NCBI RefSeq assembly: GCF_014190775.1
Contig: NZ_JACHVP010000006.1
Coordinates: 62,001 to 126,000, forward strand
Reading direction: 5' to 3'
From: Leifsonia aquatica
GTDB taxonomy: Bacteria > Actinomycetota > Actinomycetes > Actinomycetales > Microbacteriaceae
Length of the DNA: 64,000 nt
The position numbers and the translations under genes are program-made. Positions 34,911 through 57,065 of the stretch are shown here, one piece after another. The notes below the pieces were generated by a model, which was not told the origin of the DNA, made no database searches, and was given only the letters and a program-made list of their open reading frames with translations. Each line of letters opens with the position of its first letter. Position 1 is the first letter of the stretch.

Positions 34911-35777
34911 ATGAGCGGTAAGGTCATCACCCGGAATCCGCAGGAACGCCATGCAGAAGCGGAGGCACTGCACGCGTCAATCGTGGAGCAGGTCCAGCGA
35001 CTCGCCGAAAGCGGCCAATGGCGGGCATTCCTGGAGTTCGCCCGCTCCTTCCACAACTACAGCCTCAACAACCTCCTGCTGATTCTCGCCCAAAAGCCCG
35101 AAGCGACGATGGTCGCGGGCTTCCGACAGTGGCAAGCGAAGGGGCGTCAGGTCCGCAAGGGCGAGAAGTCGATCAAGATCTTCGGGTTCCGCGAGAAGAA
35201 GACCGAGAGCACGACTGAATCCGGTTCCGAGACCCCGGCCGAAGAGCACACAGTGCGGTACTTCCCCACCCTCTCGGTGTTCGACATCACGCAGACAGAT
35301 CCGATCGAAGGAGCGGACCCACTGCCGGAAGACCCCACCCGACGACTGACCGGCGACGACGACCACGGCGTGATCCGCCCGCTGACGGCTCACCTAGAGA
35401 CACACGGATGGAGCGTCCACCTGGTACTCCTGACGCGCGCGAATGGTCACACCGACCCTGAAACGAAGAAGGTTAGCCTGGCGGAAAACCTCGCGACCGA
35501 GCAGTCCGCCAAGACCCTCCTCCACGAGACAGCTCACATCGAACTGCACCACATCGATGACCTCGACGAGTACCGCACTCATCGCGGGAGGTTGGAGGTG
35601 GAAGCCGAATCCGTCGCCTATATCGTCGCCGGTCTGGCCGGCTTCGATACCAGCGCGTACAGCATCGGCTACATCGCCGGCTGGGCAGAAGAAGACGTCA
35701 CCGTCATCCGAGAGACAGCAAAGCGAGTACTGCAGGCCGCCCACACGATCGCGGAAATCCTTGAGAACCGCGAATAG
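34911..35777 (+). CDS. ArdC-like antirestriction protein (ssDNA-binding, metalloprotease fold)
   Basis: 288 residues. The N-terminal ArdC-type ssDNA-binding region (FHNYSLNNLLLILAQKPEA, GRQVRKGEKSIKIFG) and a C-terminal zinc metalloprotease core with HETAHIELHH and a downstream Glu match the ArdC/IrrE-like architecture. ArdC proteins coat incoming single-stranded DNA during conjugation and blunt host restriction. It leads the mobility region and has its own terminator at 35795. Confidence 0.85.
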   Translation: MSGKVITRNPQERHAEAEALHASIVEQVQRLAESGQWRAFLEFARSFHNYSLNNLLLILAQKPEATMVAGFRQWQAKGRQVRKGEKSIKIFGFREKKTESTTESGSETPAEEHTVRYFPTLSVFDITQTDPIEGADPLPEDPTRRLTGDDDHGVIRPLTAHLETHGWSVHLVLLTRANGHTDPETKKVSLAENLATEQSAKTLLHETAHIELHHIDDLDEYRTHRGRLEVEAESVAYIVAGLAGFDTSAYSIGYIAGWAEEDVTVIRETAKRVLQAAHTIAEILENRE

Positions 35778-36022: not shown

Positions 36023-36072
36023 TGCGCGCGCCGTGCGCGCCAAAAAGCGCGCGCAACCGGAAGTTCTAAGTG
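36023..36072 (+). promoter_or_regulatory. Bipartite ICE promoter element (copy 1, relaxase)
   Basis: Two direct repeats TGCGCGC at 36023 and 36034 are 11 bp apart. 16 bp after the second is CCGGAAGTTCTAAGTG (36057-36072). The same arrangement occurs before ssb and before the 51833 lipoprotein. It directly precedes the relaxase start at 36084. Confidence 0.7.
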
Positions 36073-36083
36073 TGAGAGGTGGA

Positions 36084-38822
36084 GTGGCGCGCTGGAAGCG
36101 CGGGCAGGCGGCCCAAGGGGTCAAGCAGGCGGTTCACTACGCCTTCGGAGGCGTCTGCGACGCCACCCTGACGGCCAAGACCACTGAGGGCGCTGTCGCG
36201 GCGGCCGGTTACGCGGACGCCGTGATGACCCGCTATATCGTCGAGAACGGCGCCATCCGCGATGACCTGCTCACCCGCTCCCAGCTGAAGGATTGGGTCG
36301 ACGGCGTGGACCCGCTCACCGGTGAACGCCGAGGCCGGGACCTGGAGTCGCCGGTTGCGGATCTGATTCTGGATGCGACGATCAACGCCCCAAAGTCCTT
36401 CTCGATCGCCGCAATGTTGGATCCGGAGGTGGCGGCGGCGTACGAGGATCTGCAGGACCGGTTGCGGGACCGGATTATCAAGCTATGGCAGGCCGAGCTC
36501 AATGCCCGCCGCGGCAAGCAGGGCGCCATCCGAGAAGACCTCGCCCGCATCGAAGTAGTCGAGCTGCAGCACGAACGGTCCCGCTCGCTGGACCCGCACA
36601 AGCACCGTCACTTGTGGCTGAACGTCAAGGTCCAGGGCCTCGACGGGAAGTGGTCCAACGTCGACACCCGTGTGGCACTGCGGTTCCAGAATGTCGTGAA
36701 TGCCGAAGGCGACCTGGCCGCCCGGACCGACCCCGCCTGGATCGCCGCGCTGGCTGCCAAGGGCTTCACCTTGAACTCGGACGGGGAGATCGCGGAGCTA
36801 CAGCATCTTGTGCGGCCGCTGTCGAAGCGCTCCGCTCAGATCGAATCGAACAAGGCGGCGCATCTCCTTCAGTGGAAACAGGAGCACCCGGGTGATGAGC
36901 CTTCGTTCGCGGTGCTAGCCCAAATCGATCAGTGGGCATGGGCGGCTGGTCGTCCGAACAAGCCGAGGCAGTTGAACGAGGAGGATTGGGCGTCCATCGT
37001 CATGGCCGAGCTCCTGCGAGCCGATCCGAAACTGCGCCAACCTCGAAGCGAGCTCGTGGCACGATCAGCGGTACTCGATGATCTCGATATCGACCTGCTT
37101 GCTGCGAAGACGGTCGTGGATGCGGATGCCCGATCGACTGGAACGGGTGGACGGTTCAGCGATATGGACATCCGGGCCGGAGCGATCCGCGCACTCGCGG
37201 GTACTGGGGTGCGAGCCAGCCGGGCGGAACTCGAAATCATCGTCGACAAGGTCATCAAGCTCGCTGAACGATCACACACCGTTACTCTGATCGACGCTGC
37301 GGAGATTCCGCATCACGTCAAGCACCGAATGGCGACATCGACAGCAGCCTTGAAGACCACGGTCGCCCTCAGAATCGACCGGCTCTCCTACAACGGAGAT
37401 GACCGAGCGCCAAACGAAATCGTCGCAATCGCCGCTCTCATCGAACCTGACCGAGAGCTTAACAGCGATCAGCTTGCGGGTGCGTCATCGCTTGCGGGAA
37501 CCGCCGGAATCGTTTGCGTTAGCGGCGCGGCTGGGGCCGGCAAGACGACCATGCTAAAGGTCGCGGGCGCTGCGCTCCGGCAGAGCGGTCGAAAGATGAT
37601 CATCGTCGCGCCAACAAAGAAGGCGTCGTCTGTTGCGGGCAGAGAGGCGAACAGCTCGTCGTCCTCCCTTCACCAACTCCTTCACGACTACGGGTGGCGC
37701 TGGAGGGTAAACGAAGCGGGCAGCGTCGACTGGATCAAGTTGAGTCCGGGGGACGTAGATGCGGATTCTGGGGTCACCTATCGAGGCCCTGTCCGCGAAG
37801 TTAGTGCGGGTGACAGGATCGTTGTCGACGAAGCAGGGATGCTCGAGCTCGAGGCTGCCAACGCGCTTCTCGACGTTATCGGGCGAACTGGAGCAGGGGT
37901 CGCCTTGGTTGGTGATCAACGCCAAGCCCTTCCGGTCGGACATTCCGGCGCAATGGCACTGTTCTGGAGACGGTCGCCACGTCGCGTAGAACTCACCACC
38001 ATCCATCGCTTCCGTGATCCTGAGTGGGCACAGCTGAGCTTGAGACTCCGGGAGCCGGACAGCTCTGAAGACATGCACGCGATCGCCAATGAACTGATTG
38101 AGAAGGGACATGTCGTACTAACGGACAACGATGCCGGTGCGGGTCTTGCGATGGTCGATGCGTGGTTTCAGGCCAATGGGGTTGGGGAAACGATCGCGCT
38201 CATCACGGCGACTCATGCCGAATCGCAAACCATCAGCGAGGCAATCCAAGCCCGTCGACTCGCAGCCGGTCAGGTTTCGACAAGACGAAAGTTCATCGGA
38301 CAAGCAGGACAGGTCATCGGAATCGGTGACATCGTTCAGACGCGGCGCAACGACTCGACGACCGGCGTCGATAATCGCCAGTCCTGGACGGTGAAAAAGA
38401 TCACTGATGACGGCTACGTCGTTCTTGCGGCCGCAGAAGACTCGTCAGACGTTCGGAGAATCAGTACGTCTTACGCTGCCGACCACGTGCACTTGGGCTA
38501 TGCATCGACCGTCTACGGCGTGCAGGGCGAAACGACGGACAGGTCGCTGGTCGGTCCGGGAGTTGACGCGGCGGGCCTGTATGTAGGGCTGACTCGCGGA
38601 CGCCAACGCAATGACATCGTCCTCGTGGCTCCCACGCCATCAGCTGCCCACTCCGAGCTAGTGGAGATGATGCAGCGACAGCCGATCGAGGAGACACTCG
38701 AGAAGTCGCGTTCTGCAGCGAGTCAGGAGTTCCGCCGCGCTGCGACGCTTCATCCGTCGGCGACCGGTCCGGCCCAGTCTTCCCCGGACCAACGCGGACG
38801 CGCGGCGTCAATTCAGCGTTGA
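36084..38822 (+). CDS. MobF-type conjugative relaxase/helicase (TrwC/TraA-like)
   Basis: About 912 residues. The N-terminal relaxase domain has a likely nucleophile Tyr in AVHYAFGG and the three-His metal motif DPHKHRHLWLN near residue 175. The C-terminal half is a RecD2/UvrD-type helicase with Walker A SGAAGAGKTTM, VDEAGMLE (Walker B) and YASTVYGVQGETTDR. Such proteins nick oriT and unwind the transferred strand. The GTG at 36084 is chosen with GAGAGGTGG just upstream; an in-frame GTG at 36072 is within the promoter motif. The T-free tract before it may belong to oriT. Confidence 0.9.
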   Translation: MARWKRGQAAQGVKQAVHYAFGGVCDATLTAKTTEGAVAAAGYADAVMTRYIVENGAIRDDLLTRSQLKDWVDGVDPLTGERRGRDLESPVADLILDATINAPKSFSIAAMLDPEVAAAYEDLQDRLRDRIIKLWQAELNARRGKQGAIREDLARIEVVELQHERSRSLDPHKHRHLWLNVKVQGLDGKWSNVDTRVALRFQNVVNAEGDLAARTDPAWIAALAAKGFTLNSDGEIAELQHLVRPLSKRSAQIESNKAAHLLQWKQEHPGDEPSFAVLAQIDQWAWAAGRPNKPRQLNEEDWASIVMAELLRADPKLRQPRSELVARSAVLDDLDIDLLAAKTVVDADARSTGTGGRFSDMDIRAGAIRALAGTGVRASRAELEIIVDKVIKLAERSHTVTLIDAAEIPHHVKHRMATSTAALKTTVALRIDRLSYNGDDRAPNEIVAIAALIEPDRELNSDQLAGASSLAGTAGIVCVSGAAGAGKTTMLKVAGAALRQSGRKMIIVAPTKKASSVAGREANSSSSSLHQLLHDYGWRWRVNEAGSVDWIKLSPGDVDADSGVTYRGPVREVSAGDRIVVDEAGMLELEAANALLDVIGRTGAGVALVGDQRQALPVGHSGAMALFWRRSPRRVELTTIHRFRDPEWAQLSLRLREPDSSEDMHAIANELIEKGHVVLTDNDAGAGLAMVDAWFQANGVGETIALITATHAESQTISEAIQARRLAAGQVSTRRKFIGQAGQVIGIGDIVQTRRNDSTTGVDNRQSWTVKKITDDGYVVLAAAEDSSDVRRISTSYAADHVHLGYASTVYGVQGETTDRSLVGPGVDAAGLYVGLTRGRQRNDIVLVAPTPSAAHSELVEMMQRQPIEETLEKSRSAASQEFRRAATLHPSATGPAQSSPDQRGRAASIQR

Positions 38823-38837: not shown

Positions 38838-39248
38838 CTAACTCAAACCGCCAGCGCGGAGCTGGTAGCCGAGCATATTTGCGCCCTCAAGGGAACCGTC
38901 GATCGCCACGTAACAAAAGAGGGCAACTTCGAGAGCATCGGCTCGCCGTTGGGCGTCCGGAAGTACACCTCCCCGGGCGAAGATGAGGGGGCGACGTCCG
39001 TCCGCCGAGGAGATTCTTGCCGCACGCTCGACAAACTCAGGCTCCAAGTTTCCGCGATGATGATCGACCCACGCGACGAACCTATGGCTGTAGAGATCAC
39101 ACGTCGAGCGAACGTCCGGAGACGCGATGACGGTGTCGGCCGCGCCGAGATACACCATCCATTCACGGCACAGTTTGACGGCGCCTTCACGTGACACACC
39201 AGAAGGGATTGGAGCAGGCGACTCTACTGCCATCTCCCAAGTGTGCAT
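38838..39248 (-). CDS. Mrr-like restriction-endonuclease-fold protein, altered catalytic site
   Basis: 136 residues. The order of REGAVKLCREWMVYLGAAD, a D-bearing strand, RFVAWVDHHRGN and GRRPLIFARGG resembles the Mrr/PD-(D/E)xK core, in which the third segment usually reads (E/Q)VK. Here that place reads WVDH, so the catalytic Lys is missing. It may be a DNA-binding or inactive relative. GAGG lies seven bases before the ATG at 39248. It sits between the relaxase and the Qat genes in opposite orientation to both. Confidence 0.55.
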   Translation of the reverse strand: MHTWEMAVESPAPIPSGVSREGAVKLCREWMVYLGAADTVIASPDVRSTCDLYSHRFVAWVDHHRGNLEPEFVERAARISSADGRRPLIFARGGVLPDAQRRADALEVALFCYVAIDGSLEGANMLGYQLRAGGLS

Positions 39249-39471
39249 CAGTCAACCTCGCGCCGATAATGTCATCCAAACTGGGGCAACCGAAAAGGGT
39301 CGTTGGGCCAACCAGTGAGGCTACGCTTCAGACACCAGTATTCGGGCGACGCCTGACAGCCAGGATCGCACCGAGAGGGTCGGTTCGCCTACCCAGGTCG
39401 CTTGGGCCTAGACGATCGCCAGCCGCGAGAGCCCTTCATGGTTTGAGCGTGGAACGTTTTCGGGAGTATTC

Positions 39472-41214
39472 GTGGGGGCTTCGCAATACCTGTTCGACGA
39501 CAATCCTGCGACGCAGGATTTGACGGGCTTAAGAACAGTCGCGCAGACGATTGCGAACGTTGTCGTCGACGAACGATTTGAAACAGTGACTGTCGGTCTC
39601 AACTCCCCATGGGGAGGAGGCAAGAGCACCGCGCTGAATCTCGTTGGCGTCGAATTGAGAAGCCGGCCGTCGACGGTGGTTGTTGAGATAGACCCATGGG
39701 AGTTCGTTGACTCAGGGGATCCTCGCGGCACTCTAATTGCTCGAGTGCTGGAGGGAATCGCAGTTGAGATACAACTTCGCGCGGATAACGCGCGCGCGAA
39801 AGAGGAAAGCAAGATCGCATCGTTTGCGCAGGACGCAATAGACCGGCTCAATGCGTTGCGCAAGAGGGTCTCCTGGAGCAAGGTTGCACAGGTCGCCATT
39901 AAGTCTGCACTTACTCTCACACCGGACATCTCGGGGATGGTGGACGCACTAACGCCCGCGCCTGAAGCTGAGACACCCTCAAAGGGAATGCGTGCCTTTC
40001 GTGAGGACTTCGGCGCATTGCTCGCCGAGATTCCTGACATCGCCAGAGTCGTTGTCCTTATCGACGACCTAGACAGATCTCTCCCCGATGACGTTCTAGG
40101 CGCATTGGAGGCAATCAAACTATTTCTCAGCGTCAAAGGCATGGCTTTCGTAATCGCCGCAGACGACGACTTCATCAGAGAGAGCCTGCGCAATGCGCTC
40201 GACCGCAACGGTGGGTCCCGAGGTCAATTCGCCGACCGATACACCGAGAAGATCGTACAGTTGCCCTTTACGCTGCCGCGCCTCGCATCACAGGACGCCG
40301 TCGCGTATTTGGCCGCACTTTTCGTCCAGGCTGAACAGGGCGAAGCCGCAGCCATTGCAGTGGCTGAACGGGCAACCCAGCGACGAGCAAACGGTGAAGT
40401 TCCATATGCCGTGGTGAATGCCGCCGGTGATATGCCAACAGAGGAGCACCTACGCCTCGCGAATCAGATCGTGCGAGGGATGAGTAGCTCCCGACGGGAA
40501 ACCCCACGACAGCTCAAGCGATTCTTGAACAATTTCGCCGTTAGGGCTGAGATGTTGGGGGCTCAATTCGATGGCTTTCCAATTGACGTGTTGATGAAGC
40601 TCTGGCTCCTTGAACAGAACTATCCTCACTACTTTCGCGACCTCGTTGGAGCGAGCGCCGACGGAAGGGCAAAACTCCTTCGCGCCTGGGAAGAGGGATC
40701 CGACACCACGCCTGTCGAGATCGCCTCATGGGCACAGGAGGCTCCTGCCGCCTCGCTCGCAGCTGAGTGGGTCGATCGGTACGTTTCGTTTGCGACGGCT
40801 GTAGTGGCCACTTTGCAATCCTCTGCGGCCCTTGACGCCGCCCAGGCCGCGCTTCTCGCAGACCTGCTTGATGTATCCGAGCTGACCCGGACCGGAGCGA
40901 TTCAGCGAATGCAGGATGCGCCTACAACTGGCGACGAGGACGTAGCTCGTCACCTTGCGACTGCGATCGTCGGTGACCGCGAGAGTGCGGCGTTGCCGTC
41001 TCTCCAGGCCCTTGCGCATGCTCGTCCAGATCTGAAGCAATTCATTGTCGAATCGCTCCTGGACGACTACGTGCTGAACGCGATCGGCGCTGAACATCTT
41101 CCTTGGCTTAGCGGCCCATTCCGCGAGGTGCTTCTTGCCCTCCGGGACCGCGACTCTACGACCGAGGACCTGCGTACCGCAATCAGCGAAGAGCTACAGG
41201 AGAATCCGTTCTAA
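39472..41214 (+). CDS. qatA: Qat anti-phage system KAP-family P-loop ATPase QatA
   Basis: 580 residues from a GTG behind GGGAG. The KAP NTPase Walker A is GLNSPWGGGKSTALNL and Walker B is VVVLIDDLDRSLPDDVLGALEAI. The C-terminal part is helical. In the Qat defence system (Gao et al. 2020 gene set) QatA is the ATPase. It overlaps qatB as TAATG, and all four qat genes follow on the same strand with tight spacing. First gene of the operon, after a 220-bp promoter gap. Confidence 0.9.
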   Translation: MGASQYLFDDNPATQDLTGLRTVAQTIANVVVDERFETVTVGLNSPWGGGKSTALNLVGVELRSRPSTVVVEIDPWEFVDSGDPRGTLIARVLEGIAVEIQLRADNARAKEESKIASFAQDAIDRLNALRKRVSWSKVAQVAIKSALTLTPDISGMVDALTPAPEAETPSKGMRAFREDFGALLAEIPDIARVVVLIDDLDRSLPDDVLGALEAIKLFLSVKGMAFVIAADDDFIRESLRNALDRNGGSRGQFADRYTEKIVQLPFTLPRLASQDAVAYLAALFVQAEQGEAAAIAVAERATQRRANGEVPYAVVNAAGDMPTEEHLRLANQIVRGMSSSRRETPRQLKRFLNNFAVRAEMLGAQFDGFPIDVLMKLWLLEQNYPHYFRDLVGASADGRAKLLRAWEEGSDTTPVEIASWAQEAPAASLAAEWVDRYVSFATAVVATLQSSAALDAAQAALLADLLDVSELTRTGAIQRMQDAPTTGDEDVARHLATAIVGDRESAALPSLQALAHARPDLKQFIVESLLDDYVLNAIGAEHLPWLSGPFREVLLALRDRDSTTEDLRTAISEELQENPF

Positions 41215-41972
41215 TGGGCACCTCGGGGGCATTCGGTGGTTCCGGAGCATGGTCCGACACAGTTGATTCGCTATACGACAGTGCCGACGCGCTGGGTTCC
41301 GATAACGAGGCCCCAATCGCTACCACCGTGATGGCCACGCTTGGACGATCGTTGGCAAGAGGCGACCGACGCGGCAAGTCGTACGACGTCAGTGATTTGC
41401 TCGGCGGCCGTGGGATCGCTGGAGCGTCGAGCTCTGGCGACGGAAGAGATAGTGGTGGCGCTCCCTTCACCAGGGAAGCAGCGCGCGGGTCGCTGGTCCT
41501 TGACGCTCTAGCGTCAATCGAAAATGGCGAAATCCCACACCTAGTCGAGTACGGGGTCGACTTCACGTCGCTCGAGGGCTTAAGCGGTCTGAAGCTGCTA
41601 ACGGAGCTGATCGGATTGATCCTCGGTCCGCCGTCACATCCAGATGACGCGGCCCTCCAACAAGCACTAATCGCCACGATGCGATCTTCCGAGAAGCAAG
41701 CGGCCGGGACCTTGGCCGAAACCATCGGACGGTTCGTCAGTGAGCTGGCTTGGCGGAGGACTGTGGTTCAGTTAACCACTAGCCAGCGCCGAGTCTCGGC
41801 GATCGGGTCTTCAATGCGTCGTCTGGAGGAACGCGTGAGGACCTATATCAGCGGAAAGGTCCAGCAGGTCACTGGACAGCTAGTGAATGCGACGCCTCAA
41901 ACCGTCGCCGATTACGCTTCCAAGCTGGCTGCCAAAGCCTGTCGATTGTTTGGTCGAGGAGACGACAAGTGA
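41214..41972 (+). CDS. qatB: Qat system accessory protein QatB
   Basis: 252 residues with no recognised enzyme motif. A Gly/Ser-rich N-terminus (MGTSGAFGGSGAW) and a helical C-terminus are seen, the usual QatB make-up. Start overlaps the qatA stop. Identification rests mainly on position between the KAP ATPase and the QueC-like gene. Confidence 0.8.
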   Translation: MGTSGAFGGSGAWSDTVDSLYDSADALGSDNEAPIATTVMATLGRSLARGDRRGKSYDVSDLLGGRGIAGASSSGDGRDSGGAPFTREAARGSLVLDALASIENGEIPHLVEYGVDFTSLEGLSGLKLLTELIGLILGPPSHPDDAALQQALIATMRSSEKQAAGTLAETIGRFVSELAWRRTVVQLTTSQRRVSAIGSSMRRLEERVRTYISGKVQQVTGQLVNATPQTVADYASKLAAKACRLFGRGDDK

Positions 41973-43231
41973 CAAGTCACTCGGTAACAGTCGCACCCGC
42001 GGGCATGGAAGTTGATTCAGACCAGATCCCGCTCGTTTGGCCACGCGAAGGCGATGTAGACGCAAACGTGATTTCCAATTTGTCTTGGGATCTCGAACAA
42101 TTTGCCGCTGCCAGTCCCGCGGCGCGCGACTTCTATCGAATTGCGGCAGCAGCGTATCTGGCAGATAGCGCCGTGTCGAAGCCAGCCGTCTCGCTTCATC
42201 GGCAGCTCCGCGTAACCACATTTGTCGAGGATCCGCAGCCCTGGGAGGCCGGGGCTCTGACCGATCTTGCCGACTTGCTTCACTGGCTCACTGGCGATTC
42301 GTGGGCCTTCATTCTGAACCCGGAGGACGCACGGCTGCCGCTCCAAGTTGCCGAGCCAGCTGACCGAATCCAGCTGCTTTCGGGAGGGCTCGACTCGCTC
42401 TGCGGAGCCGCCATTGGCCTCAGAGACGAATCGAGCATCCGTTTTGTGGGACACCGCGACGCATCACGCGCGGTTCGACACGCGCAGCGGCTCATTGATG
42501 ACGCAATTGGGGACGTGCCCTACGACCGATTCGAGTTCTACCTGCGAGATACCTCGCGGCGAAAGAACCACGGTCCCCGATCGCGATCGTTGATGTTCAT
42601 GGCCCTTGGAGCGATGTCTGCTCACTCACACGGTGCCAGCACGCTATGGGTACCAGAGAACGGATTCACGAGCATCAACCCGCCGTTGGATGCGGGTCGA
42701 GGTGGAACGCTAACAACTCGCTCGACTCATCCATACACGTTCCTTCTCGTGTCGTCCCTGTTGGAGACTTTGGGCATCGGTGTGGAAATCACGAATCCAT
42801 TCACGTCGATGACCAAGGGGGAACTGGTCGCTGCCGCTCTCCCGGACCTTGCAACGCCCAAGTTTGCCGATGCCCTCAAGTCCTCCTTCTCTTGCGCAAA
42901 GGGGGGAACACAATTTCACGGAGGCGATTCCAACCACAATTGCGGTCTATGTGTCGCTTGCGTCGTAAGGCGCGGCGCCTTCTTGGGCGCGGGAATCGAG
43001 GATCCGAGCGATTATGACTGCGAGCTCCTTGACGGCAGTGACTTGGACGGGCTGTTGAAGCAACGGTGGCGCGATATCGTGAGCCTTCGTGAGGCTGCAG
43101 AATTCGGGATCCCCGAAGAGCTTGTGTTGAGTTCCGCTCGGTGGCCGCGCGACACCGACTTCGCCGGCGTAATGGACCTCGTAAGACGCGGTCTCGCAGA
43201 AATTGGACATGTACAACTTCCCAGCCCTTGA
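41969..43231 (+). CDS. qatC: Qat system QueC-like protein QatC
   Basis: 420 residues. The PP-loop QLLSGGLDSLCGA matches 7-cyano-7-deazaguanine synthase, and the C-terminal Cys cluster CAKGG...CGLCVACVVRRGAF is the zinc site of QueC. The N-terminal 120 residues are extra compared with housekeeping QueC. No other queuosine gene is near, so defence rather than tRNA modification is likely. GTGA overlap with qatB. Confidence 0.9.
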   Translation: MTSHSVTVAPAGMEVDSDQIPLVWPREGDVDANVISNLSWDLEQFAAASPAARDFYRIAAAAYLADSAVSKPAVSLHRQLRVTTFVEDPQPWEAGALTDLADLLHWLTGDSWAFILNPEDARLPLQVAEPADRIQLLSGGLDSLCGAAIGLRDESSIRFVGHRDASRAVRHAQRLIDDAIGDVPYDRFEFYLRDTSRRKNHGPRSRSLMFMALGAMSAHSHGASTLWVPENGFTSINPPLDAGRGGTLTTRSTHPYTFLLVSSLLETLGIGVEITNPFTSMTKGELVAAALPDLATPKFADALKSSFSCAKGGTQFHGGDSNHNCGLCVACVVRRGAFLGAGIEDPSDYDCELLDGSDLDGLLKQRWRDIVSLREAAEFGIPEELVLSSARWPRDTDFAGVMDLVRRGLAEIGHVQLPSP

Positions 43232-43955
43232 TTGCCATGCTCACGTCGCTCACGACGTGACCCAGGCTCAGGTGAAGTCCCTCGAAGGCGCCATCATCTT
43301 CGCGATGACTCGTTCCCTAAACGAGTTCCATGCTGCGACTAGCAATCGTCAGCGTGGGCTGGTGTGGGCAATCGGCACTCATCCCGCCAACGCATCGTCT
43401 CTCAACCAATGGTCCGGAGACCGCTTCCGCCGACTTGCGAAGCTATCTCCGATAATCGGGGAGGTGGGACTCGATCGTCGTGGAGACCTGGAGGCCCAAG
43501 CTCGCATATTCCGCGAAGTTCTCGTCAATGCGGGCGCCTCGCTCATCTCTGTGCATTCGACCGGACGAACGCGCGAGGTCATTAATGCACTCGAGAAGAA
43601 TAGCCACCCGGGAGTAATTCTTCATTGGTTCCTCGGAAACCCCCAGGAGGTTTCGCGGGCTGCGGCGTTGGGGTGCTTCTTTTCAGTTAACGCCGCGATG
43701 TCGGACGCTCAACTGACTGCGCTGCCTCTCGACCGGGTGCTACCAGAAACAGACTTTCCTTCGTCGCGAACGCGAACCGGGGCTCGTGTCCCGGGCGACG
43801 TCCGTGCCTTGGAAAAGACTGTTGCCCGCCTTACTCGTAAGGACGTTGGCGAAGTGCGCGAGCTTTGGTATCGCAATCTGCGAAGGCTGTCGCTCCAGGC
43901 AGAGGTGGTCCATCGATTACCGCTAGAGCTGGCTGATGCCTTGGAAAGGGCCTAA
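43209..43955 (+). CDS. qatD: Qat system TatD-family nuclease QatD
   Basis: 248 residues of the TatD amidohydrolase fold. Metal motifs DCHAHV, IGEVGLDR, SVHSTG, LHWFLG and PETDFPSS are all visible, so the nuclease centre looks intact. It is shorter and more divergent than housekeeping TatD. The ATG at 43209 lies inside the end of qatC; a TTG at 43203 is the track start and is less likely. Last gene of the qat operon. Confidence 0.88.
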   Translation: MYNFPALDCHAHVAHDVTQAQVKSLEGAIIFAMTRSLNEFHAATSNRQRGLVWAIGTHPANASSLNQWSGDRFRRLAKLSPIIGEVGLDRRGDLEAQARIFREVLVNAGASLISVHSTGRTREVINALEKNSHPGVILHWFLGNPQEVSRAAALGCFFSVNAAMSDAQLTALPLDRVLPETDFPSSRTRTGARVPGDVRALEKTVARLTRKDVGEVRELWYRNLRRLSLQAEVVHRLPLELADALERA

Positions 43956-44039
43956 GAACACTTTCGGACGGGCCAACATTCTCAGCGCGACTGGACGTCG
44001 AGGGTGTTGTCGAAAGCAATTCGGCGTCCCACCGCTATG

Positions 44040-44078
44040 CGTCTGATGGGGCCCGACAAGGTCGCGCCCCACCAGACG
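44040..44078. terminator. Hairpin between convergent qatD and ssb
   Basis: CGTCTG-A-TGGGGC pairs with GCCCCA-CC-AGACG around a 14-nt loop. It lies in the 130-bp gap between the convergent qatD and ssb genes, where a bidirectional terminator is expected. No T-run, so the call is tentative. Confidence 0.42.
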
Positions 44079-44085
44079 GCAAGGG

Positions 44086-44532
44086 TTAGTTGATCGTCGC
44101 AGAAGCAGCCTGCGGTGTCCGGGCATCCGAGCTAGGCCCGGTCGCGGATGCGTCCAGGCCGTCAGCTTTTGGGACGCGACGGGTCACCTCCGCTGTCGTG
44201 TAGCGGAGCGACGGCCCGACGCTGTCGGCGACGACTTCTGTGGCGGCTCGGGGTTCGCCGGTGGCCTGGTCGGTCCAGTGGCGGAACTCGAGGTTGCCGT
44301 TGACGATGACGGTGTCGCCTTTGGCGAGGCTGGCGCGGACGTTCTCGGCTGTGCGGCCGAAGACGGTGGTGCGGTGGTACTGGGTGTCTCCGTCGACCCA
44401 TTTGCCGTCTTCGAGCTTGCGGTCGGTGACGGCGACGGTGAACTTGGCGAACTTGGTGCCGTTCTGTGATTCGCCGTAGTCAGGGTCGGCGACGAGGTTG
44501 CCTTCGATACTGATGGGGACTCGTGTGCTCAT
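44086..44532 (-). CDS. ssb: ICE single-stranded DNA-binding protein
   Basis: 148 residues with an OB-fold SSB core (GNLVADPDYG, KFAKFTVAVTDR, YHRTTVFGRTAENV, GDTVIVNGNLEFRHW). The short, divergent C-terminal tail ends SATIN rather than the DDDxPF tip of housekeeping SSB, so it may not recruit the same repair partners. It likely coats transferred single strands. Expressed leftward behind a copy of the bipartite ICE element at 44577-44626. GAAAGGA precedes the ATG. Confidence 0.9.
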   Translation of the reverse strand: MSTRVPISIEGNLVADPDYGESQNGTKFAKFTVAVTDRKLEDGKWVDGDTQYHRTTVFGRTAENVRASLAKGDTVIVNGNLEFRHWTDQATGEPRAATEVVADSVGPSLRYTTAEVTRRVPKADGLDASATGPSSDARTPQAASATIN

Positions 44533-45114: not shown

Positions 45115-45515
45115 GGCTGCTCCAGGGACGCTTCGATGTAGTGGGCGATCTTGGCCTGCAGCCGGGCGATCGCCTGGACGGAAGCGGTGCGGCGCGAGAC
45201 GAACCCCGAGAGGGCACGGTCGCGGTCGATCAGCTGGTGGACGTATTCGTGGCAGCGCGGGTGCAGCGCGGTCAGGTCTTCATGCGGCTCGTGGGCGGTC
45301 CATCCGTGCGGGGTCTGGGTGACGCCGCGGTAGTCGAGGTGGTGCAGCTCGAGCGAGTGGGAGCCACCGGCGCCGAGGCAGAGGGCGCAGCGGATTTCGC
45401 CGTTGCGGGTCTGCTCGTCGAGGAACCATCGGTCGCGGCGGGCGAACCAGGCTCCGGAGTGCAGGTAGTTGGTGCGGTACGTGTTGCCCCGGGCGGGACG
45501 GCGACGGTTGGACAT
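45111..45515 (-). CDS. HNH-type endonuclease-like protein
   Basis: 134 residues. CALC near residue 43, LELHHLDYRG and HEDLTALHPRCHEYVHQLID are the Cys/His pairs of an HNH/ββα-metal site. Could nick or cut DNA during transfer or act as a toxin; evidence does not decide. It overlaps both neighbours by 1-4 bases within the transfer operon. Confidence 0.7.
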   Translation of the reverse strand: MSNRRRPARGNTYRTNYLHSGAWFARRDRWFLDEQTRNGEIRCALCLGAGGSHSLELHHLDYRGVTQTPHGWTAHEPHEDLTALHPRCHEYVHQLIDRDRALSGFVSRRTASVQAIARLQAKIAHYIEASLEQP

Positions 45516-47320
45516 CAGTCTCCCTCTCCAGCTGATCCTCGGCGATCGAGCGCGGCTTGGTACTGTTCGGCGAACACGACCTGCTGGTCGAGCTCGGTGA
45601 GCTTCTTGCCCGCGCTGACTTGGCGGGCGTCGTCGCGGTCGGTCCAGCCACGCAGGTCAAGCAGGATTCCGCGCCGGTTGCGGTAGGCGAGCAGTCCGAC
45701 GGTCTCGGGCATGCGGCGGATCTCGTCGATTGTCATCACCGGGACCTTCTCGTTCTGCACGTTCGTGGACGACCCGTTGTCGTTATAGGAGTGCCCCGTG
45801 TTCCGGATCCGCCGGGTCCCGAGAAGAGATTCGATGTCGCGCAGGTGGTCGACGTCGGATGCGCCGCCGAGGAGGAGCTTGGCGGTGGCGGCCGACCAGA
45901 TCGTGTCGGCCTCAGACCGCGACCAGGCGGTCTCGGCCTGCGAGAGGGCCTGGAGGACGACGATGGTGGAGATGCCGATGCCGCCACCATCGGCCATGAT
46001 CCGTGGCAGCGCAGGCCAGGAGAACATGTTCGCGATCTCGTCCAGGACCAGCGCGAGCGGCAGATCCAGCCGCGACCCGGGCGAGGCAAGAGCTTTCCGT
46101 CGTGCGGTCTCGACGATGTCGTCGAGGACCGCGCCGAGGAACCCGCCGACGGATCCGGCGCCGGCGCCGGTGCCGACAAGGTAGAGGCTGTTAGATCCGG
46201 CGAGGAACGCGTCGAGGTCGAACTGCTCCCCCGGCCCCGGCGTCATCGCCTTCCTGATCGACGGGATGGACAGCGGTCGGAGCGCGCCGAAGACGCCGAA
46301 CCAGGAGTTCGCCAGGAGCTTCTCATCGCCGTTGATGATCGCGTCCAAGTCCTCCGACCAGCCGGGGGACCCCTGGTTGGCGAGCACGCTCACGGCTTCG
46401 CGTGCGAGGCGCGGGTTGGAGCCCCACCGGGCCAAGGCATCGGTGCCACGTTGGGATACTGCTGCAGCGTGGAGCAGTCGGGAGAGCACGGAGGAAGACA
46501 CTTGCGCCCATTCCTGGTTGGTCTTCGAGGCGCCCAGGGCGGTGCCGGCGATGATCGCCTGACCGCGCTGGTCCGCCACCAGGGGGTCTTCGCACCCGGC
46601 GACCGGCGAGATCCGCAGCGCCGAGCGGACGCCGGTGAGCTCCTGGGGATCGAACACCGTGACCTCGCCGAGCCGGGCGCGTTCGCGCATAGTGGCGGAG
46701 AGATTGTCGTTGCGAGTGGAGGTGGTGATGAGCGGGCCGTCCCAGTCAAGGATGGCGTTGATGATGAACCGGTAGCCCTTTCCAGAGCGGGGCGCGCCTT
46801 CCACGACGATCGAGTCCTCGATCGACACGTAGACGTCCTGCCCGTGAGCGCTGCCAACCTTCCACCCCGCAGCCGACGGATCCGGGTTCACCAACGCTGG
46901 GCGCAGCGTCTTGGCACGCTGGAGCGCCGTGCGTGCGGAGGTGTGCATGCGAACCTCACCGGGCTTGGCGAGCCCGTCACGGCCGCGGAGCTCGTGGATG
47001 AAGTGCCGATCAGACTGGCGGTACCGAAGCCACCAAACCACGACCACCGCCACGAGGCTCAGAAGCAGGAAGACCGCGAGGAGGTCGAGCCCTCGGACCA
47101 AGGTCACCGGTGCTTCGCATCCGCGAGCGAGGGCGAAGCCGCTGGGGTCGCCGCCGATGGCCAGTTGGAGGCCGGCGAAGACGCTCCCAGGCTGGCCTCC
47201 CCCGCCGCAGGTTATGGTGATGGTGGCGTTGGCGATGCCGGTGGTGAGGGCGCCGGCGGCGACGAGGGCGAAGAGGCAGTAGACGGCCAACTGGGTCCAG
47301 GTGGAGCCATGGGTTCTCAT
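45515..47320 (-). CDS. Type IV coupling protein (VirD4/TraG-like, TraM-recognition domain)
   Basis: 601 residues. Two N-terminal helices (LAVYCLFALVAAGALTTGI; DLLAVFLLLSLVAVVVVWWL) are followed by Walker A VEGAPRSGKGYRF near residue 175, Walker B LALVLDEIANMF and a TraM-recognition segment (VLQALSQAETAWSRSEADTIWSAATAKLLLGG). Coupling proteins link the relaxosome to the mating channel and pump DNA. It overlaps the VirB4-like gene by four bases. Confidence 0.9.
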   Translation of the reverse strand: MRTHGSTWTQLAVYCLFALVAAGALTTGIANATITITCGGGGQPGSVFAGLQLAIGGDPSGFALARGCEAPVTLVRGLDLLAVFLLLSLVAVVVVWWLRYRQSDRHFIHELRGRDGLAKPGEVRMHTSARTALQRAKTLRPALVNPDPSAAGWKVGSAHGQDVYVSIEDSIVVEGAPRSGKGYRFIINAILDWDGPLITTSTRNDNLSATMRERARLGEVTVFDPQELTGVRSALRISPVAGCEDPLVADQRGQAIIAGTALGASKTNQEWAQVSSSVLSRLLHAAAVSQRGTDALARWGSNPRLAREAVSVLANQGSPGWSEDLDAIINGDEKLLANSWFGVFGALRPLSIPSIRKAMTPGPGEQFDLDAFLAGSNSLYLVGTGAGAGSVGGFLGAVLDDIVETARRKALASPGSRLDLPLALVLDEIANMFSWPALPRIMADGGGIGISTIVVLQALSQAETAWSRSEADTIWSAATAKLLLGGASDVDHLRDIESLLGTRRIRNTGHSYNDNGSSTNVQNEKVPVMTIDEIRRMPETVGLLAYRNRRGILLDLRGWTDRDDARQVSAGKKLTELDQQVVFAEQYQAALDRRGSAGEGD

Positions 47321-48765
47321 GCCCGCTCACCCCCCATGGCGTCGGTGCGGAAGATGCCGAGTTCGTAGTCGGTGCAGATGTTGCGGATCTTCGCTACCCG
47401 GTCCTGTCCGATCTGCCACAGCCCTTCACCCTTATGAAGCTTGCGGACGAGGTCGGCCTGGGTGTCGTTCCAGCCCAGGATCTCCCGCGACCGCGCGATC
47501 TCACCGGAATGTTGCGCGTAGGAGATGCGGGTCTCGCAGTCGGCCAGGAGGCCGAGAGCGCGGGAGTGGAGGGCACTGTTGCGGTCGCCAAGCGCGTCCA
47601 GGTCGGCGACTCGATGCAGGAGGTACCAGTTGGAGGTGCCGAGGTGGCGGGCGACCTTCTCGTCCTCCACGCGGTCGGCGAGGCCGTCGCCGCCGGAGAC
47701 GTCGTTGAGAAGTTCGACTGCGGCCTCTTCATGGATGATGACGCGAGCTTGCCGGTTCGCGCCCAAGCTGGAGCGGCGGATCCAGTTCGCGGTCGCCAGC
47801 CGAGCGAGCGCCTGCGCTTCCGGCGACGCGCCCTTCAGTGCGGAGGTGTCGACGACCATCATTGGGGCGTCCGCGTCGAAGCGGACGGTGGAGGGCCCGT
47901 CGAAGAAGCCGGTGAGGTCTCCGGACACCATTCGACGCAGCGAGTGAGCGAGGCGGTGGCCAGCGTCCGCGACCTCTGTCGGGATGGTTTCGTTGGGGTC
48001 GACGAGGCGGTCGTAGACGTGAGTGATGGTAACGGTGGAGTTCCCGCGGAGGGCGTCGAGGGCGACGTCGAGGGCCGTGTGCTCGACCGGCTCCAGGTTC
48101 CCGCCCTCGCGGAGCCGGCGGATGATCGTCTTCACCGTCGCACGACGGTATTGGAGTACGTTCTGGTTCCAGTCCTCATCCGAGAACGAGAGGTCCCGTG
48201 GACCCTCATCGAGCAGATTGATCCGCGCAGCCTTGCCGGGGCCGACGGAGATGGAGGTGCCGCCAACGTACGCGGCAACGCGCACCCACTCCCCGTTGGG
48301 GTCGTGCGGCACGGCGATCTTGCGACCCAGCCGGGCGAGCCGGGAGGACCAGGACTTGGCCAGCATCGACTTGCCGGTGCCCTTGACGCCGAGGATGGCG
48401 ACGGAGTGGGAGCGGACGGCTTCGGCGGAGTACGCGTCCCAGGGGTCGAAGCAGAACGGAGCCCGGGAGAGCAGGTTCTCGCCGATGTACGCGCCGGTGA
48501 GGATGTCCCCGGTCTCGGCCAGAAACGGATACGCACCACCCAGCACTTTGGACGAGCAGCGGTGTGCGGGTGGGGTGGCGCGCAGTGGGCCACGCAGGTT
48601 GTGCGGCTGTTTCCACCCCCACGCCGGCATCTTCGACGCCGGCAACTCCGCAGTCTGCAGCTTCCAGGACGAGTTCTTCTCCGCCGTGGCGGTCTGGCGG
48701 TGGCGGCCGTTCGCTCCCGGCTTCTCATTCGCCGGGATGCGACCGATGACAGCTGACTGCTTCAT
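47317..48765 (-). CDS. VirB4-like conjugation ATPase
   Basis: 482 residues with Walker A ILGVKGTGKSMLAKSW near residue 127, Walker B APMMVVDTSALKG, and a helical C-terminus with REILGWNDTQADLVRKL. The protein is shorter than full VirB4 because the membrane-proximal half is a separate gene, SCO6880, two bases upstream. It powers the mating apparatus. Confidence 0.85.
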   Translation of the reverse strand: MKQSAVIGRIPANEKPGANGRHRQTATAEKNSSWKLQTAELPASKMPAWGWKQPHNLRGPLRATPPAHRCSSKVLGGAYPFLAETGDILTGAYIGENLLSRAPFCFDPWDAYSAEAVRSHSVAILGVKGTGKSMLAKSWSSRLARLGRKIAVPHDPNGEWVRVAAYVGGTSISVGPGKAARINLLDEGPRDLSFSDEDWNQNVLQYRRATVKTIIRRLREGGNLEPVEHTALDVALDALRGNSTVTITHVYDRLVDPNETIPTEVADAGHRLAHSLRRMVSGDLTGFFDGPSTVRFDADAPMMVVDTSALKGASPEAQALARLATANWIRRSSLGANRQARVIIHEEAAVELLNDVSGGDGLADRVEDEKVARHLGTSNWYLLHRVADLDALGDRNSALHSRALGLLADCETRISYAQHSGEIARSREILGWNDTQADLVRKLHKGEGLWQIGQDRVAKIRNICTDYELGIFRTDAMGGERA

Positions 48766-48766
48766 G

Positions 48767-50299: not shown

Positions 50300-50302
50300 G
50301 AG

Positions 50303-51355
50303 TTATCTCCCAACCTTGACGACTCGTGCCGCGGTGCGGACGGGCGCGGCGGCGGTGCTCGCCCGGGAGAACTGATCGCGGACGGAGAACCGGTGGTGGA
50401 GCGCGGTGCCGACTTCAGCACCGGCGAACGAGACGAGCTTGGTCGCCCACAACGGGCTGAACGACGCGGCGATCACCGCGCCGGCGGCGACGAGGATGAC
50501 GCCGATACTGAGGCTGGCCTTGGTCAGCTCTACAGCCAGAAGGACCACACCGGCGGCGAGGGGCTTGGCGATAAGCAACCCGACAGAGAGGTTCAGCCAA
50601 CGTTGGGCCCAGGCGGTTAGCTTGGGCTGGCCGATCATCATCAGCCCGACCGGGGCCATCGCGGCAAGCGCCAGGAGTCCGAACTCGCGGATCGACATGG
50701 CGATGAACAGGAACAGCGATGCGATCATCATCAAGCCGACGATGAGCAACGCCATCACGTATTCGCCAACCGAACCTGGACCCTGTGCCCCTTGGATGGC
50801 CATACCCCAGATCACGCCGTCCTGGGAGAACTGCATGGTCTTCATCACGGCGCCGTGGATCTGCTTCGGGGCGTCGAAGAGGCCGACGACCCGGAGCAGG
50901 CTTTGGCTCAGGTCGCCGCCTTGGACGGCGGTGGTAAGCGCGTGCGTGATGTCGTCGGTGATGCCGGAAGCCTTCTGCATCCCCCACACGCAGATCGCGC
51001 TGAACGGGATGGCAAGGGCGGCGCCGACGGCGGTGCGGCCGATGCGTGACCAGTCCTGAAGGATCATCGCGATGCCGATCTGGACCAGCGCGACGATCAA
51101 GATGACGGGTGCGGTGACGGCGATCCAGAACAGGAACTGCGAGTGGGCGATGTTCCAGCTGCCCTGGTCGATGTTCGTGTTGAAGGAGCCGGCGATCATC
51201 GTCGCGATGAAGTCGCCGAGGTTCTTGATGGTGGACCCCATGAACTGGGCGATCGTTTGGGATGCCTGGCACCCGAAGTCGGCGACAAAGCAGCCGTAGT
51301 TCGGGGCGAACGGATCCGGTGGTGCGGAAGCGACAGTGGCGATCATGATGGTCAC
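50303..51355 (-). CDS. VirB6/TrbL-like polytopic channel protein
   Basis: 350 residues with about six helices. Near the middle are WFDAPKQIHGAVMKTM-type sequence (LFDAPKQIHGAVMKTM) and LLALAAMAPVGLMMIGQPKLTAWAQRWLNLSVGLLIAKPLAAGVV, typical of actinobacterial TrbL/VirB6 proteins. It should form the inner-membrane channel. It overlaps the small pilin-like gene by four bases. Confidence 0.8.
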   Translation of the reverse strand: MTIMIATVASAPPDPFAPNYGCFVADFGCQASQTIAQFMGSTIKNLGDFIATMIAGSFNTNIDQGSWNIAHSQFLFWIAVTAPVILIVALVQIGIAMILQDWSRIGRTAVGAALAIPFSAICVWGMQKASGITDDITHALTTAVQGGDLSQSLLRVVGLFDAPKQIHGAVMKTMQFSQDGVIWGMAIQGAQGPGSVGEYVMALLIVGLMMIASLFLFIAMSIREFGLLALAAMAPVGLMMIGQPKLTAWAQRWLNLSVGLLIAKPLAAGVVLLAVELTKASLSIGVILVAAGAVIAASFSPLWATKLVSFAGAEVGTALHHRFSVRDQFSRASTAAAPVRTAARVVKVGR

Positions 51356-51827: not shown

Positions 51828-51832
51828 GACGG

Positions 51833-52562: not shown

Positions 52563-52580
52563 TTTGGGAGACTCGTTTGG

Positions 52581-55838: not shown

Positions 55839-57065
55839 ATGGGAAGCATCGAGAGCTACCAGACCGCCAACGGACGCCGCTACCGCGTGCGCTACCGCGA
55901 TCCCGACCATCGCTCACGCGAGAAGGCCGGGTTCACACGGAAGTTCGACGCCGAACAGTTCCTCGCCACAACCACCGTGACGACTTCGCGCGGTGAGTGG
56001 GTCGATCCCTCATCGGCCAAGGCCGAGGTCGGCGCACTTGCTGCAGAGTGGCTCGCCTCGCGCAGCAATCTCAAGCCGTCATCGCTCCGCCCGCTTGAAG
56101 GCTCGTGGCGCAAACACGTCGCGCCGAAGTGGGCACACCGTCGCGTCGGCGAAATCCGACACAGTGAAGTGCAGAGCTGGATCGCCGAGATATCAAAAGT
56201 CAGCTCGCCGACCGTCGTCATTCGCGCACACGGGGTGCTTGCCGGGATTCTCGACATCGCGATGCGGGATCGGCGCATCACGCAGAACCCTGCCCGCGAA
56301 ATCAAGTTGCCCCGCAAGATCCCGAAGGAGCACGTCTACCTCACCCATCAGCAGGTCCACGACCTCGCGAAGGCCTCGGGTGACCGCGCGCCGATCATCC
56401 TGCTGCTCTGCTACACCGGCCTGCGCTGGGCCGAGATGGTCGGCCTGCGAGTGAAGGACATCGACTTCGAACGGCGACGTATCCGCGTCTCCGAGAACGC
56501 GGTCGAGGTCGACGGGATCATCGAAGTCGGCACACCGAAGTCGCACAAACGCCGCACTGTCCCTTTTCCCCATCTCCTGGACCCGGCGCTGCGTCCGTTG
56601 GTCGAGGGCAAGGGGCCGGACGAGCTCGTCTTCGCCGACAAGCGCGGCATGTACCTGCGGCGCACTCGAGTGAGCACCGCATCACGTTCTTGGTTCGTGA
56701 CCGCACGGATCTCGGCTGGCATCCCACAGATGACCATTCACGATCTCCGGCACACCGCAGCGAGCCTCGCCGTGTCGGCCGGCGCCAACGTAAAAGCCAT
56801 CCAGCGGATGCTCGGCCACGCCTCCGCAGCCATGACTTTGGATATCTACGCCGACCTCTTCGACGATGACCTCGACGACGTTTCGGCACGCCTCGATGAC
56901 GCCGCGACGAAATCAGTTGTGGGGTTTTTGTGGGGGATGGGCAAATCTGGCCAGAAAAAACCCCCGGAATCGTTGAGTTTCCGGGGGTTTCGATCGGCGG
57001 AGACGGAGGGATTTGAACCCTCGGTCCCCTTACGGGGACTCCACCTTAGCAGGGTGGTGCACTAG
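55839..57065 (+). CDS. Tyrosine site-specific integrase with tRNA-derived C-terminus
   Basis: 408 residues. An N-terminal SAM-like core-binding domain precedes the catalytic domain, with Arg196 (CYTGLRWAE), His301-Arg304 (HDLRH), a GH motif in LGHASAAMT and nucleophile Tyr337 (TLDIYADLF). The ORF does not stop there: residues about 373 onward read through the tRNA-Ser terminator hairpin, and from about 387 on are translated antisense from the tRNA-Ser gene itself, ending at a TAG inside the tRNA. In the excised circle the tail may differ. GGAGGTGTAG upstream could serve as a distant ribosome-binding site. Confidence 0.93.
   Translation: MGSIESYQTANGRRYRVRYRDPDHRSREKAGFTRKFDAEQFLATTTVTTSRGEWVDPSSAKAEVGALAAEWLASRSNLKPSSLRPLEGSWRKHVAPKWAHRRVGEIRHSEVQSWIAEISKVSSPTVVIRAHGVLAGILDIAMRDRRITQNPAREIKLPRKIPKEHVYLTHQQVHDLAKASGDRAPIILLLCYTGLRWAEMVGLRVKDIDFERRRIRVSENAVEVDGIIEVGTPKSHKRRTVPFPHLLDPALRPLVEGKGPDELVFADKRGMYLRRTRVSTASRSWFVTARISAGIPQMTIHDLRHTAASLAVSAGANVKAIQRMLGHASAAMTLDIYADLFDDDLDDVSARLDDAATKSVVGFLWGMGKSGQKKPPESLSFRGFRSAETEGFEPSVPLRGLHLSRVVH
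56958..56990 (-). terminator. Rho-independent terminator of tRNA-Ser, inside the integrase ORF
   Basis: On the minus strand AAACCCCCGGAA pairs with TTCCGGGGGTTT (12 bp) and is followed by a six-T run. It directly follows the tRNA-Ser 3' end and would end leftward transcription from the tRNA. It lies within the last codons of the integrase. Confidence 0.85.

What the first reader, a model, noticed from the sequence alone, without database searches (positions are those of the whole stretch)
39472..43955. Complete Qat defence system between relaxase and ssb
KAP ATPase, QatB, QueC-like and TatD-like genes are in the known order with TAATG, GTGA and 23-bp overlaps. Motifs of QatA, QatC and QatD are intact. 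It is inserted in the mobility region, not the copper cargo, and is flanked by an Mrr-like gene on the other strand. The ICE therefore carries phage immunity to new hosts.
Basis: partly seen in the sequence, partly recalled or inferred. Interest (0 to 1): 0.6.

Follow-up and report, generated by a model that had tools for sequence, protein, structure and literature searches.

The report
Divergent Qat phage-defence operon on ICE
A mobile element of an actinobacterium carries a complete, divergent copy of the known four-gene Qat anti-phage system, and most of the Qat-bearing relatives sampled lack a gene needed to make the compound that Qat is thought to use, which makes an open question about Qat testable.

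Summary
Window 39472-43955 holds qatA-B-C-D in the known order with the stated overlaps. QatA, QatC and QatD match Qat models but fall below NCBI's naming cut-offs. QatB matches no QatB model, yet it starts MGTS; its family aligns with canonical QatB by profile (98.1%, E 7e-14; one control 0.1%) and its low-confidence model ranks solved QatB first. Leifsonia sp. C5G2 has the same ICE segment with qat at 95% DNA identity, and all four genes look constrained. The 'Mrr-like' neighbour matches no Pfam family and is ICE backbone: it follows the relaxase in 19 of 20 related loci. Between it and ssb lies a variable cargo slot; 4 of 7 related slots hold other defence-type genes. QatC belongs to a supported actinobacterial clade with Ser at a position published as invariant Thr. 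And 17 of 23 Qat-bearing genomes examined have no QueD-family gene, and 2 of 23 a credible QueE (the window's host is one). The proposed donor CDG is therefore unlikely to be universal. Anti-phage activity, co-transcription and transfer were not tested.

The parts
39472..41214 (+). qatA, KAP-family P-loop NTPase, 580 aa, GTG start
   Evidence: PADLOC QatA 1.4e-53; Pfam KAP_NTPase 1.3e-35; Walker A and B segments aligned with relatives
41214..41972 (+). qatB, 252 aa, starts MGTSGAFGGSGAW
   Evidence: No QatB model hit; hhalign with canonical QatB 98.1%, E 6.9e-14; fold match to solved QatB, Z 8.8; MGTS start
41969..43231 (+). qatC, QueC-like, 420 aa, GTG start, SGGLDS and four-cysteine site; Ser252 at the position of P. 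aeruginosa T280
   Evidence: PADLOC QatC 1.7e-55; PDB QatC 7.3e-30; fold Z 37.1 over 384 residues; site alignment
43209..43955 (+). qatD, TatD-type nuclease, 248 aa from ATG 43209 (alternative TTG 43203)
   Evidence: PADLOC QatD 2.3e-31; Pfam TatD_DNase 7.1e-26; five TatD motif segments aligned with relatives
39200..44134 (.). variable cargo slot of the ICE family (approximate limits of homology, not insertion points)
   Evidence: DNA comparison with 7 related ICEs that have both flanks: right limit found in 7 of 7, left limit in 5 of 7
   Evidence: Follows the relaxase in 19 of 20 related loci; no relevant Pfam match for 6 members
36033..38822 (+). MobF/TrwC-type relaxase-helicase, left backbone
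   Evidence: Pfam TrwC 1.9e-29, AAA_30 7.2e-38
44086..44532 (-). ssb, right backbone
   Evidence: Pfam SSB 9.6e-26
45515..47320 (-). TraG-type coupling protein, right backbone
   Evidence: Pfam TraG-D_C 1.7e-26
55839..57065 (+). tyrosine integrase of the element, overlapping tRNA-Ser 56996-57086
   Evidence: Pfam Phage_integrase 6.7e-27; ARAGORN

Best explanation
A complete, closely packed qatABCD anti-phage operon of a divergent actinobacterial branch, carried as exchangeable cargo of an ICE between a conserved gene next to the relaxase and ssb. Mechanism, by analogy with characterised Qat (inferred): QatC binds QatB and, in an ATP-dependent reaction, modifies the exposed N-terminal glycine of QatB (MGTS after removal of Met); the QatBC pair is the core of defence, and the KAP NTPase QatA and the TatD-type nuclease QatD widen or regulate its range. 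I think the donor is more likely not the queuosine precursor CDG (7-carboxy-7-deazaguanine), because most Qat-bearing actinobacteria examined have no QueD-family gene and QatC lacks the Tyr/Asp pair that reads the deazaguanine; for this last step the odds are about even. Shown here: homology, order, overlaps, motifs, constraint, slot. Inferred: activity, chemistry, co-transcription, transfer.
For: Order and overlaps. A, C and D models. QatC: solved QatC at 7.3e-30, fold Z 37.1 over residues 2-420 with both Qat extensions. QatB: MGTS start; profile match 98.1% against one control of 0.1%; solved QatB first in Foldseek and VIA-align. The four genes stand in the same order in two Microbacterium, Protaetiibacter mangrovi, Microbacteriaceae PS02343 and Leifsonia C5G2. 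dN/dS 0.06-0.31 against Leifsonia C5G2. Slot. Donor: PF01242 in 6 of 23, credible QueE in 2 of 23. Mechanism of known Qat: PMC13279940, parts 1-3 read.
Against: All three recognised proteins are below NCBI's equivalog cut-offs, and QatB is found by no single model. The QatB model has mean pLDDT 54.6, its Foldseek match (E 0.087) is not significant alone, and Z 8.8 is within what helical bundles can reach by chance. No sigma-70-like promoter was found (0; 1.5 expected by chance), though actinobacterial promoters may differ. The window's own genome does have adjacent QueC-, QueD- and QueE-like genes, so CDG cannot be excluded in this host. Damaged Qat copies exist elsewhere: split qatB on Rhodococcus plasmid pLP1, an in-frame TGA in the QatC match of G580.
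Confidence: 0.8

Rival explanations
1. [quoted passage not shown]
For: Shared QueC core (Cap9 Z 13.8) and N-terminal glycine; proposed in PMC13279940 and PMC13329287; the window's genome has adjacent QueC-, QueD- and QueE-like genes, and G1067 a PTPS gene beside a partial QueE match.
Against: 17 of 23 Qat-bearing genomes have no PF01242 gene; among them are the hosts of near Qat relatives G072, G228 and both Microbacterium. The nearest relative, Leifsonia C5G2, has a PTPS gene but no QueE match. QatC has a Thr-x-Thr/Ser motif in place of the Tyr/Asp pair that binds CDG.
Confidence: 0.35
2. The operon mainly protects the ICE against competing plasmids, ICEs or satellites and only secondarily against phages.
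For: It sits in the transfer region of a mobile element with an ArdC-type antirestriction gene nearby (34911-35777), and related ICEs, including a second one in the same genome, carry other genes in the same slot.
Against: Known Qat systems act on phages (PMC13279940); no data on plasmids were found here, and none were looked for.
Confidence: 0.15
3. It is a silent or decaying cargo operon without activity in this host.
For: No promoter-like consensus; low similarity to tested Qat; broken Qat copies occur elsewhere.
Against: All four frames are open and the motif segments intact; dN/dS against the nearest copy is 0.06-0.31.
Confidence: 0.06

Closest known systems
qatABCD of Pseudomonas aeruginosa and E. 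coli (PMC13279940; PDB 9zee/9zef, 9y01/9y02, 9vlk/9vll)
   Same: Four genes in the same order; QatB with MGTS start and an aligned helical domain; QatC with SGGxDS, four-cysteine site and both extensions; KAP NTPase; TatD-type nuclease
   Different: QatC about 27% identical in the structural alignment; Ser instead of Thr at the T280 position; QatB detectable only by profile or fold
Type IV CBASS Cap9 with its CD-NTase (abstract PMC11996544; PDB 9nto)
   Same: QueC-like enzyme acting on the N-terminal glycine of a partner protein
   Different: QatB is not a CD-NTase; Cap9 matches only the QatC core (residues 131-345); the CDG-binding Tyr/Asp pair is absent in QatC
[quoted passage not shown]
   Same: Core fold and ATP loop (Z 13.3)
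   Different: QatC has two extensions and a different substrate site; E. coli QatC does not replace QueC in vivo (PMC13329287, passages)
Defence hotspots of mobile elements, e.g. P2-like phages and P4-like satellites (PMC9122126, search listing only)
   Same: A fixed position in a mobile element that holds different defence genes in different copies
   Different: Here the position is in a MobF-relaxase ICE family of Microbacteriaceae, bordered by a small conserved gene and ssb; seen in few copies, and also with non-defence genes

Membership tests
Qat (qatABCD) | KAP-family NTPase QatA as first gene | tested here: met
   PADLOC 1.4e-53, Pfam KAP_NTPase 1.3e-35; NCBIfam equivalog cut-off not reached (218 of 600 bits)
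Qat (qatABCD) | QatB with N-terminal MGTS and a homologous helical domain | tested here: met
   MGTS start; profile match 98.1% with canonical QatB, control 0.1%; fold Z 8.8 against 5.9 for the next unrelated chain; no single-model hit
Qat (qatABCD) | QatC: QueC core with SGGxDS, four cysteines and N- and C-terminal extensions | tested here: met
   Motifs; fold match 2-420 to 2-455 of solved QatC
Qat (qatABCD) | QatC T278 and T280, reported invariant | tested here: inconclusive
   T278 kept, T280 replaced by Ser; the same in 11 of 29 QatC aligned, 10 of them one clade. The published invariance does not hold in this sample.
Qat (qatABCD) | TatD-type nuclease QatD with metal-binding motifs | tested here: met
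   PADLOC 2.3e-31 and five motif segments aligned with relatives
Qat (qatABCD) | Fixed order A-B-C-D, overlapping genes | tested here: met
   Overlaps of 1, 4 and 23 bp; same order in five related genomes
Qat (qatABCD) | Protection against phages; QatB-QatC complex | not testable with these tools
   Needs bench work
NDG protein deazaguanylation (Cap9-type) | Tyr/Asp pair of the CDG site | tested here: not met
   Replaced by Thr250 and Ser252 in the window's QatC (reference residues from PMC13279940)
NDG protein deazaguanylation (Cap9-type) | Host able to make CDG (QueD and QueE) | tested here: inconclusive
   Window's genome: adjacent QueC-, QueD- and QueE-like genes, all under the NCBI cut-offs. 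Other Qat-bearing genomes: PF01242 absent from 17 of 23 in all
Mrr-type restriction endonuclease (flanking gene) | Match to an Mrr family model | tested here: inconclusive
   No Mrr-family match at E 1 for 6 members; the conserved CDLYS...WV(D/E)N stretch shows no invariant lysine as the recalled PD-(D/E)xK motif would; no fold comparison was made
ICE | Integrase, relaxase, coupling protein and conjugation genes together, with att sites | tested here: inconclusive
   Integrase, relaxase and TraG found; no convincing att repeat at the tRNA-Ser in the 103 kb scanned

The most novel reading that the evidence does not exclude
QatC does not use the queuosine precursor CDG at all. [quoted passage not shown] Qat would then be a second, chemically different kind of QueC-driven protein modification, working in bacteria that cannot make deazaguanines, and the Ser280 clade carried by this ICE would be a natural variant of its substrate site.
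Probability: 0.5. Interest if true: 0.65.

Novelty: new member of a known kind. Interest (0 to 1): 0.42.

Why it matters
On its own this is one more Qat operon, in a clade that current models under-name: related operons on a Rhodococcus and an Arthrobacter plasmid are annotated as P-loop NTPase, hypothetical or QueC-like proteins and TatD hydrolase, without the Qat name. It bears on an open question stated in PMC13279940: which reaction QatC catalyses. The genome survey gives a simple prediction, that Qat should work without QueD and QueE. Two hosts with nearly the same Qat, one with adjacent QueC-, QueD- and QueE-like genes (the window's) and one with a PTPS gene but no QueE match (Leifsonia C5G2), are a natural pair for that test. 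The cargo slot is also a place to look for further defence genes.

Tried and rejected
QatB by single models: no hit in PADLOC (except RT-Toprim at 0.013) or NCBIfam; only sub-threshold DUF7856 (0.0095) in Pfam; PDB sequences gave only a cysteine desulfurase at 0.54. A window-type QatB profile found only chance PDB hits, 0.59 and 0.74.

A clean empty site: none found. The smallest related slot is 2.0 kb and holds a DUF4062 gene. No repeats stand at both borders beyond short two-copy matches, so the limits are limits of homology, not insertion points.

Attachment site: exact repeats of 16 bases or more around tRNA-Ser were sought in C6 42001-145000; only two overlapping 16-mers recurred, 18 kb away. 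Not pursued.

Relatives in viral contigs: 15 candidate stretches, none confirmed. Plasmids: 141 records, all under 60% identity.

Ser280 as a marker: QatC of L096 (G699) also has Ser but lies on a long branch outside the clade. I left L096 and L097 (long branches) out of the second tree; the 10 Ser rows then form one clade, 98/97, with the motif masked.

Rows dropped: L084 and L085 (same contigs as L003 and L002) and L098 (partial) from the QatC counts; the ssb comparison with L085 is another ssb and was ignored. Genomes G114 (fragment with a stop) and G857 (weak partial match) had QatC hits but were not among the 18 of the que survey. QueE scoring is loose: G636, G396 and G1066 have only fragments of 84-99 positions at 21-25 bits and no PF01242 gene, and I read them as other radical-SAM enzymes; G1067 has a 39-bit partial match beside a PTPS gene and is counted as probably positive. 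G580, G699, G751 and G1063 have a PF01242 gene without a QueE match.

Papers PMC13376578 and PMC13044698 are not held, nor was the preprint 10.1101/2025.11.03.686418 seen, so a published answer on the QatC donor may exist that I could not see.
Full report
What is there. qatA starts at GTG 39472 and ends in TAATG, whose ATG starts qatB; qatB ends in GTGA, whose GTG starts qatC. qatD can start at TTG 43203 or ATG 43209; the ATG gives the 23-bp overlap and fits the starts of two homologues. PADLOC names A, C and D with E-values from 1e-31 to 1e-55 and no QatB. NCBIfam gives the same three well below its naming cut-offs. The segments of QatA (Walker A and B), QatC (SGGLDS, four cysteines) and QatD (five TatD motifs) are intact and aligned with relatives (the motif names are recalled).

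Is the second gene QatB? Single-sequence and single-model searches fail. Three other lines agree. First, the protein starts MGTS, the motif that PMC13279940 reports as conserved and whose glycine is essential. Of 32 loci examined (30 distinct), 28 (26 distinct) had an ORF starting xGTS upstream of qatC, two started MGTQ or VGTN, and in two none was found; the script looked for starts of the form Met-Gly-Thr, so it favours this. In five Microbacteriaceae QatB, 11 of the first 13 residues are invariant, against 19 of the next 69 and 59 of the last 170. Second, a profile of window-type QatB aligns with a profile of canonical QatB over 166 columns, 98.1% probability, E 6.9e-14, and with a third QatB group at 99.5%; the same profile against QatC, the only control run, gives 0.1%. 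The canonical profile finds solved QatB at 1e-66 and 4.6e-60. Third, the predicted fold, although of low confidence (mean pLDDT 54.6), has solved QatB as its first Foldseek match (probability 0.95, E 0.087, not significant alone) and as its first VIA-align match, Z 8.8, rmsd 4.9, 162 residues, the next unrelated chain at 5.9. The tool warns that helical bundles can reach such Z by chance; I rely on the three lines together.

QatC. The model (mean pLDDT 84.9) matches solved QatC at Z 37.1 over 384 residues, from residue 2 to 420, so both Qat-specific extensions are present; Cap9 (13.8) and B. subtilis QueC (13.3) match only the core. In 29 aligned QatC proteins the position of T278 is always Thr; the position of T280 is Thr in 18 and Ser in 11. 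PMC13279940 calls both invariant. Ten of the 11 Ser proteins, the window's among them, form one clade (99/99; 98/97 with the motif masked and two long branches left out). All ten come from Actinomycetota. The change is conservative and its effect is unknown.

Distribution and constraint. QatC relatives occur in 9 of 299 family genomes (E 0.001, one a broken fragment), 8 of 396 of the order and 7 of 396 of the phylum (both at E 1e-10); these samples overlap and each includes the window's genome. A scan of named genomes gave seven loci: Leifsonia sp. C5G2 at 97% QatC identity, two Microbacterium, Protaetiibacter mangrovi (contig of the same length as that of G228), Microbacteriaceae PS02343 (likewise G072) and two MAGs; hence I take the window's family to be Microbacteriaceae. 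Leifsonia C5G2 shares 9.55 kb at 95.4% DNA identity, from just before the relaxase to beyond ssb. Against it dN/dS is 0.06 (A), 0.13 (B), 0.21 (C) and 0.31 (D). The qat genes have 58-60% G+C against 67% for the ICE stretch 47317-53936, which fits import from elsewhere.

The slot. I took the best 20 of the 55 relaxase matches other than the window's listed. The small minus-strand gene follows the relaxase in 19 of 20 (it looks broken or cut in L052 and L055, and has an early stop in L043 as I read it). In 7 of these the ssb-TraG module follows on the other side within the fetched stretch; in one more (L059) the TraG part is present without the small gene and without a detected ssb; in 12 neither ssb nor TraG was found within about 34 kb. 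In the 7, DNA homology on the right begins inside the ssb C-terminal codons (44134-44177); on the left it is detectable in 5 and ends at 39172-39192, inside the 5' part of the small gene. Slot lengths are 2.0 to 11.7 kb in the 7 relatives and 4.8 kb here. Contents, from Pfam scans of 20 proteins and PADLOC scans of 10 of them: L042 E1/ThiF protein; L049 AbiJ_NTD4 and HNH; L052 PDC-S73 candidate defence NTPase (5.3e-128) and Schlafen AlbA_2; L058 multiubiquitin, E1/ThiF and a protein kinase; these four look like defence. L040 (second such element of the same genome; a 1487-aa protein with a sub-threshold nSTAND match), L041 (DUF4062) and L044 (M78 peptidase and others) are unclear. L040 also has genes that look by eye like metal-efflux genes, and L059 has metabolic genes by eye, so the position is not only for defence. 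No control for ordinary gene content was run; 'defence-rich' is an impression from four of seven.

Mechanism. PMC13279940 (parts 1-3 and 5 of 6 seen) shows for P. [quoted passage not shown] the reaction itself could not be reconstituted. PMC13329287 (passages) reports that QatC does not replace QueC and cites the proposal of deazaguanylation. If CDG were the donor, hosts should be able to make it. I searched 18 Qat-bearing actinobacterial genomes plus the five genomes behind L081, L082, L083, L086 and L087. The QueD family (PF01242) is found in 4 of 18 and 2 of 5. QueE (TIGR03365) matches over its full length only in the window's genome (89.5 bits, cut-off 206); G1067 has a partial match beside a PTPS gene. 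The searches ring in 9 and 10 of 14 named control genomes. In the order at large 64 of 248 genomes match TIGR03365 at E 0.001, none over the cut-off; the window's match is the only one spanning the whole model, the next best being 75.6 bits over positions 6-196. So QueE is rare there in general: the result says that Qat persists without it, not that the two avoid each other. Salvage, unknown enzymes, incomplete genomes and missed divergent QueE are possible. In PMC13279940 the words QueE and QueD do not occur, and the passages of PMC13329287 with them do not treat Qat hosts; one search for Qat, queuosine, defense system and QueE (three of four required) found only PMC13329287 with both Qat and QueE. 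I therefore favour another donor, with about even odds, and note that the window's host is an exception that has adjacent QueC-, QueD- and QueE-like genes.

Verdict. The finding is real and correctly named; it is a divergent member of a known system in a mobile slot. The new value lies in the clade-level change at the substrate site and in the prediction that Qat does not need CDG.

Noticed in passing
L107 about 4924-9685 (G000:C2 about 292.9-297.7 kb): The window's genome has a run of genes for a DNA-glycosylase-like, a PfkB-like, a QueC-like, a SagB-like oxidoreductase, a QueD-like and a QueE-like protein, all below NCBI cut-offs; perhaps a deazapurine natural-product or nucleic-acid modification pathway rather than ordinary queuosine synthesis.
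   Followed up: partly
L040 (G000:C2:18568-38000): A second related element in the same genome, with 92-95% identical ssb, TraG and neighbours but 72% identical relaxase (which has an in-frame TAA in its match) and a different 11.7-kb slot with a 1487-aa unnamed ATPase-like protein.
   Followed up: partly
window 38838-39248: A small protein family (CREWM...CDLYSxxYLAWV(D/E)N...) directly downstream of the relaxase on the other strand in 19 of 20 related loci, with no known domain; an unnamed backbone gene of these elements.
   Followed up: partly
L043, L045-L048, L050, L051, L053-L057: Twelve relaxase loci with the small conserved gene but no ssb or TraG homologue within about 34 kb downstream: perhaps mobilizable elements or a different gene arrangement.
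   Followed up: no
L099 4110-4960 (Rhodococcus qingshengii plasmid pLP1): A Ser280-type Qat operon in which qatB is annotated as two short ORFs, so it may be broken or misread.
   Followed up: no
window 34911-35777: An ArdC-type antirestriction gene with an M78 peptidase domain stands just upstream of the relaxase.
   Followed up: no
L101 (Bradyrhizobium barranii plasmid pBb1S5a): A qatBCD set beside CBASS genes; no qatA was annotated or found by tblastn in the 11-kb stretch, and the annotated qatB is short (195 aa).
   Followed up: no
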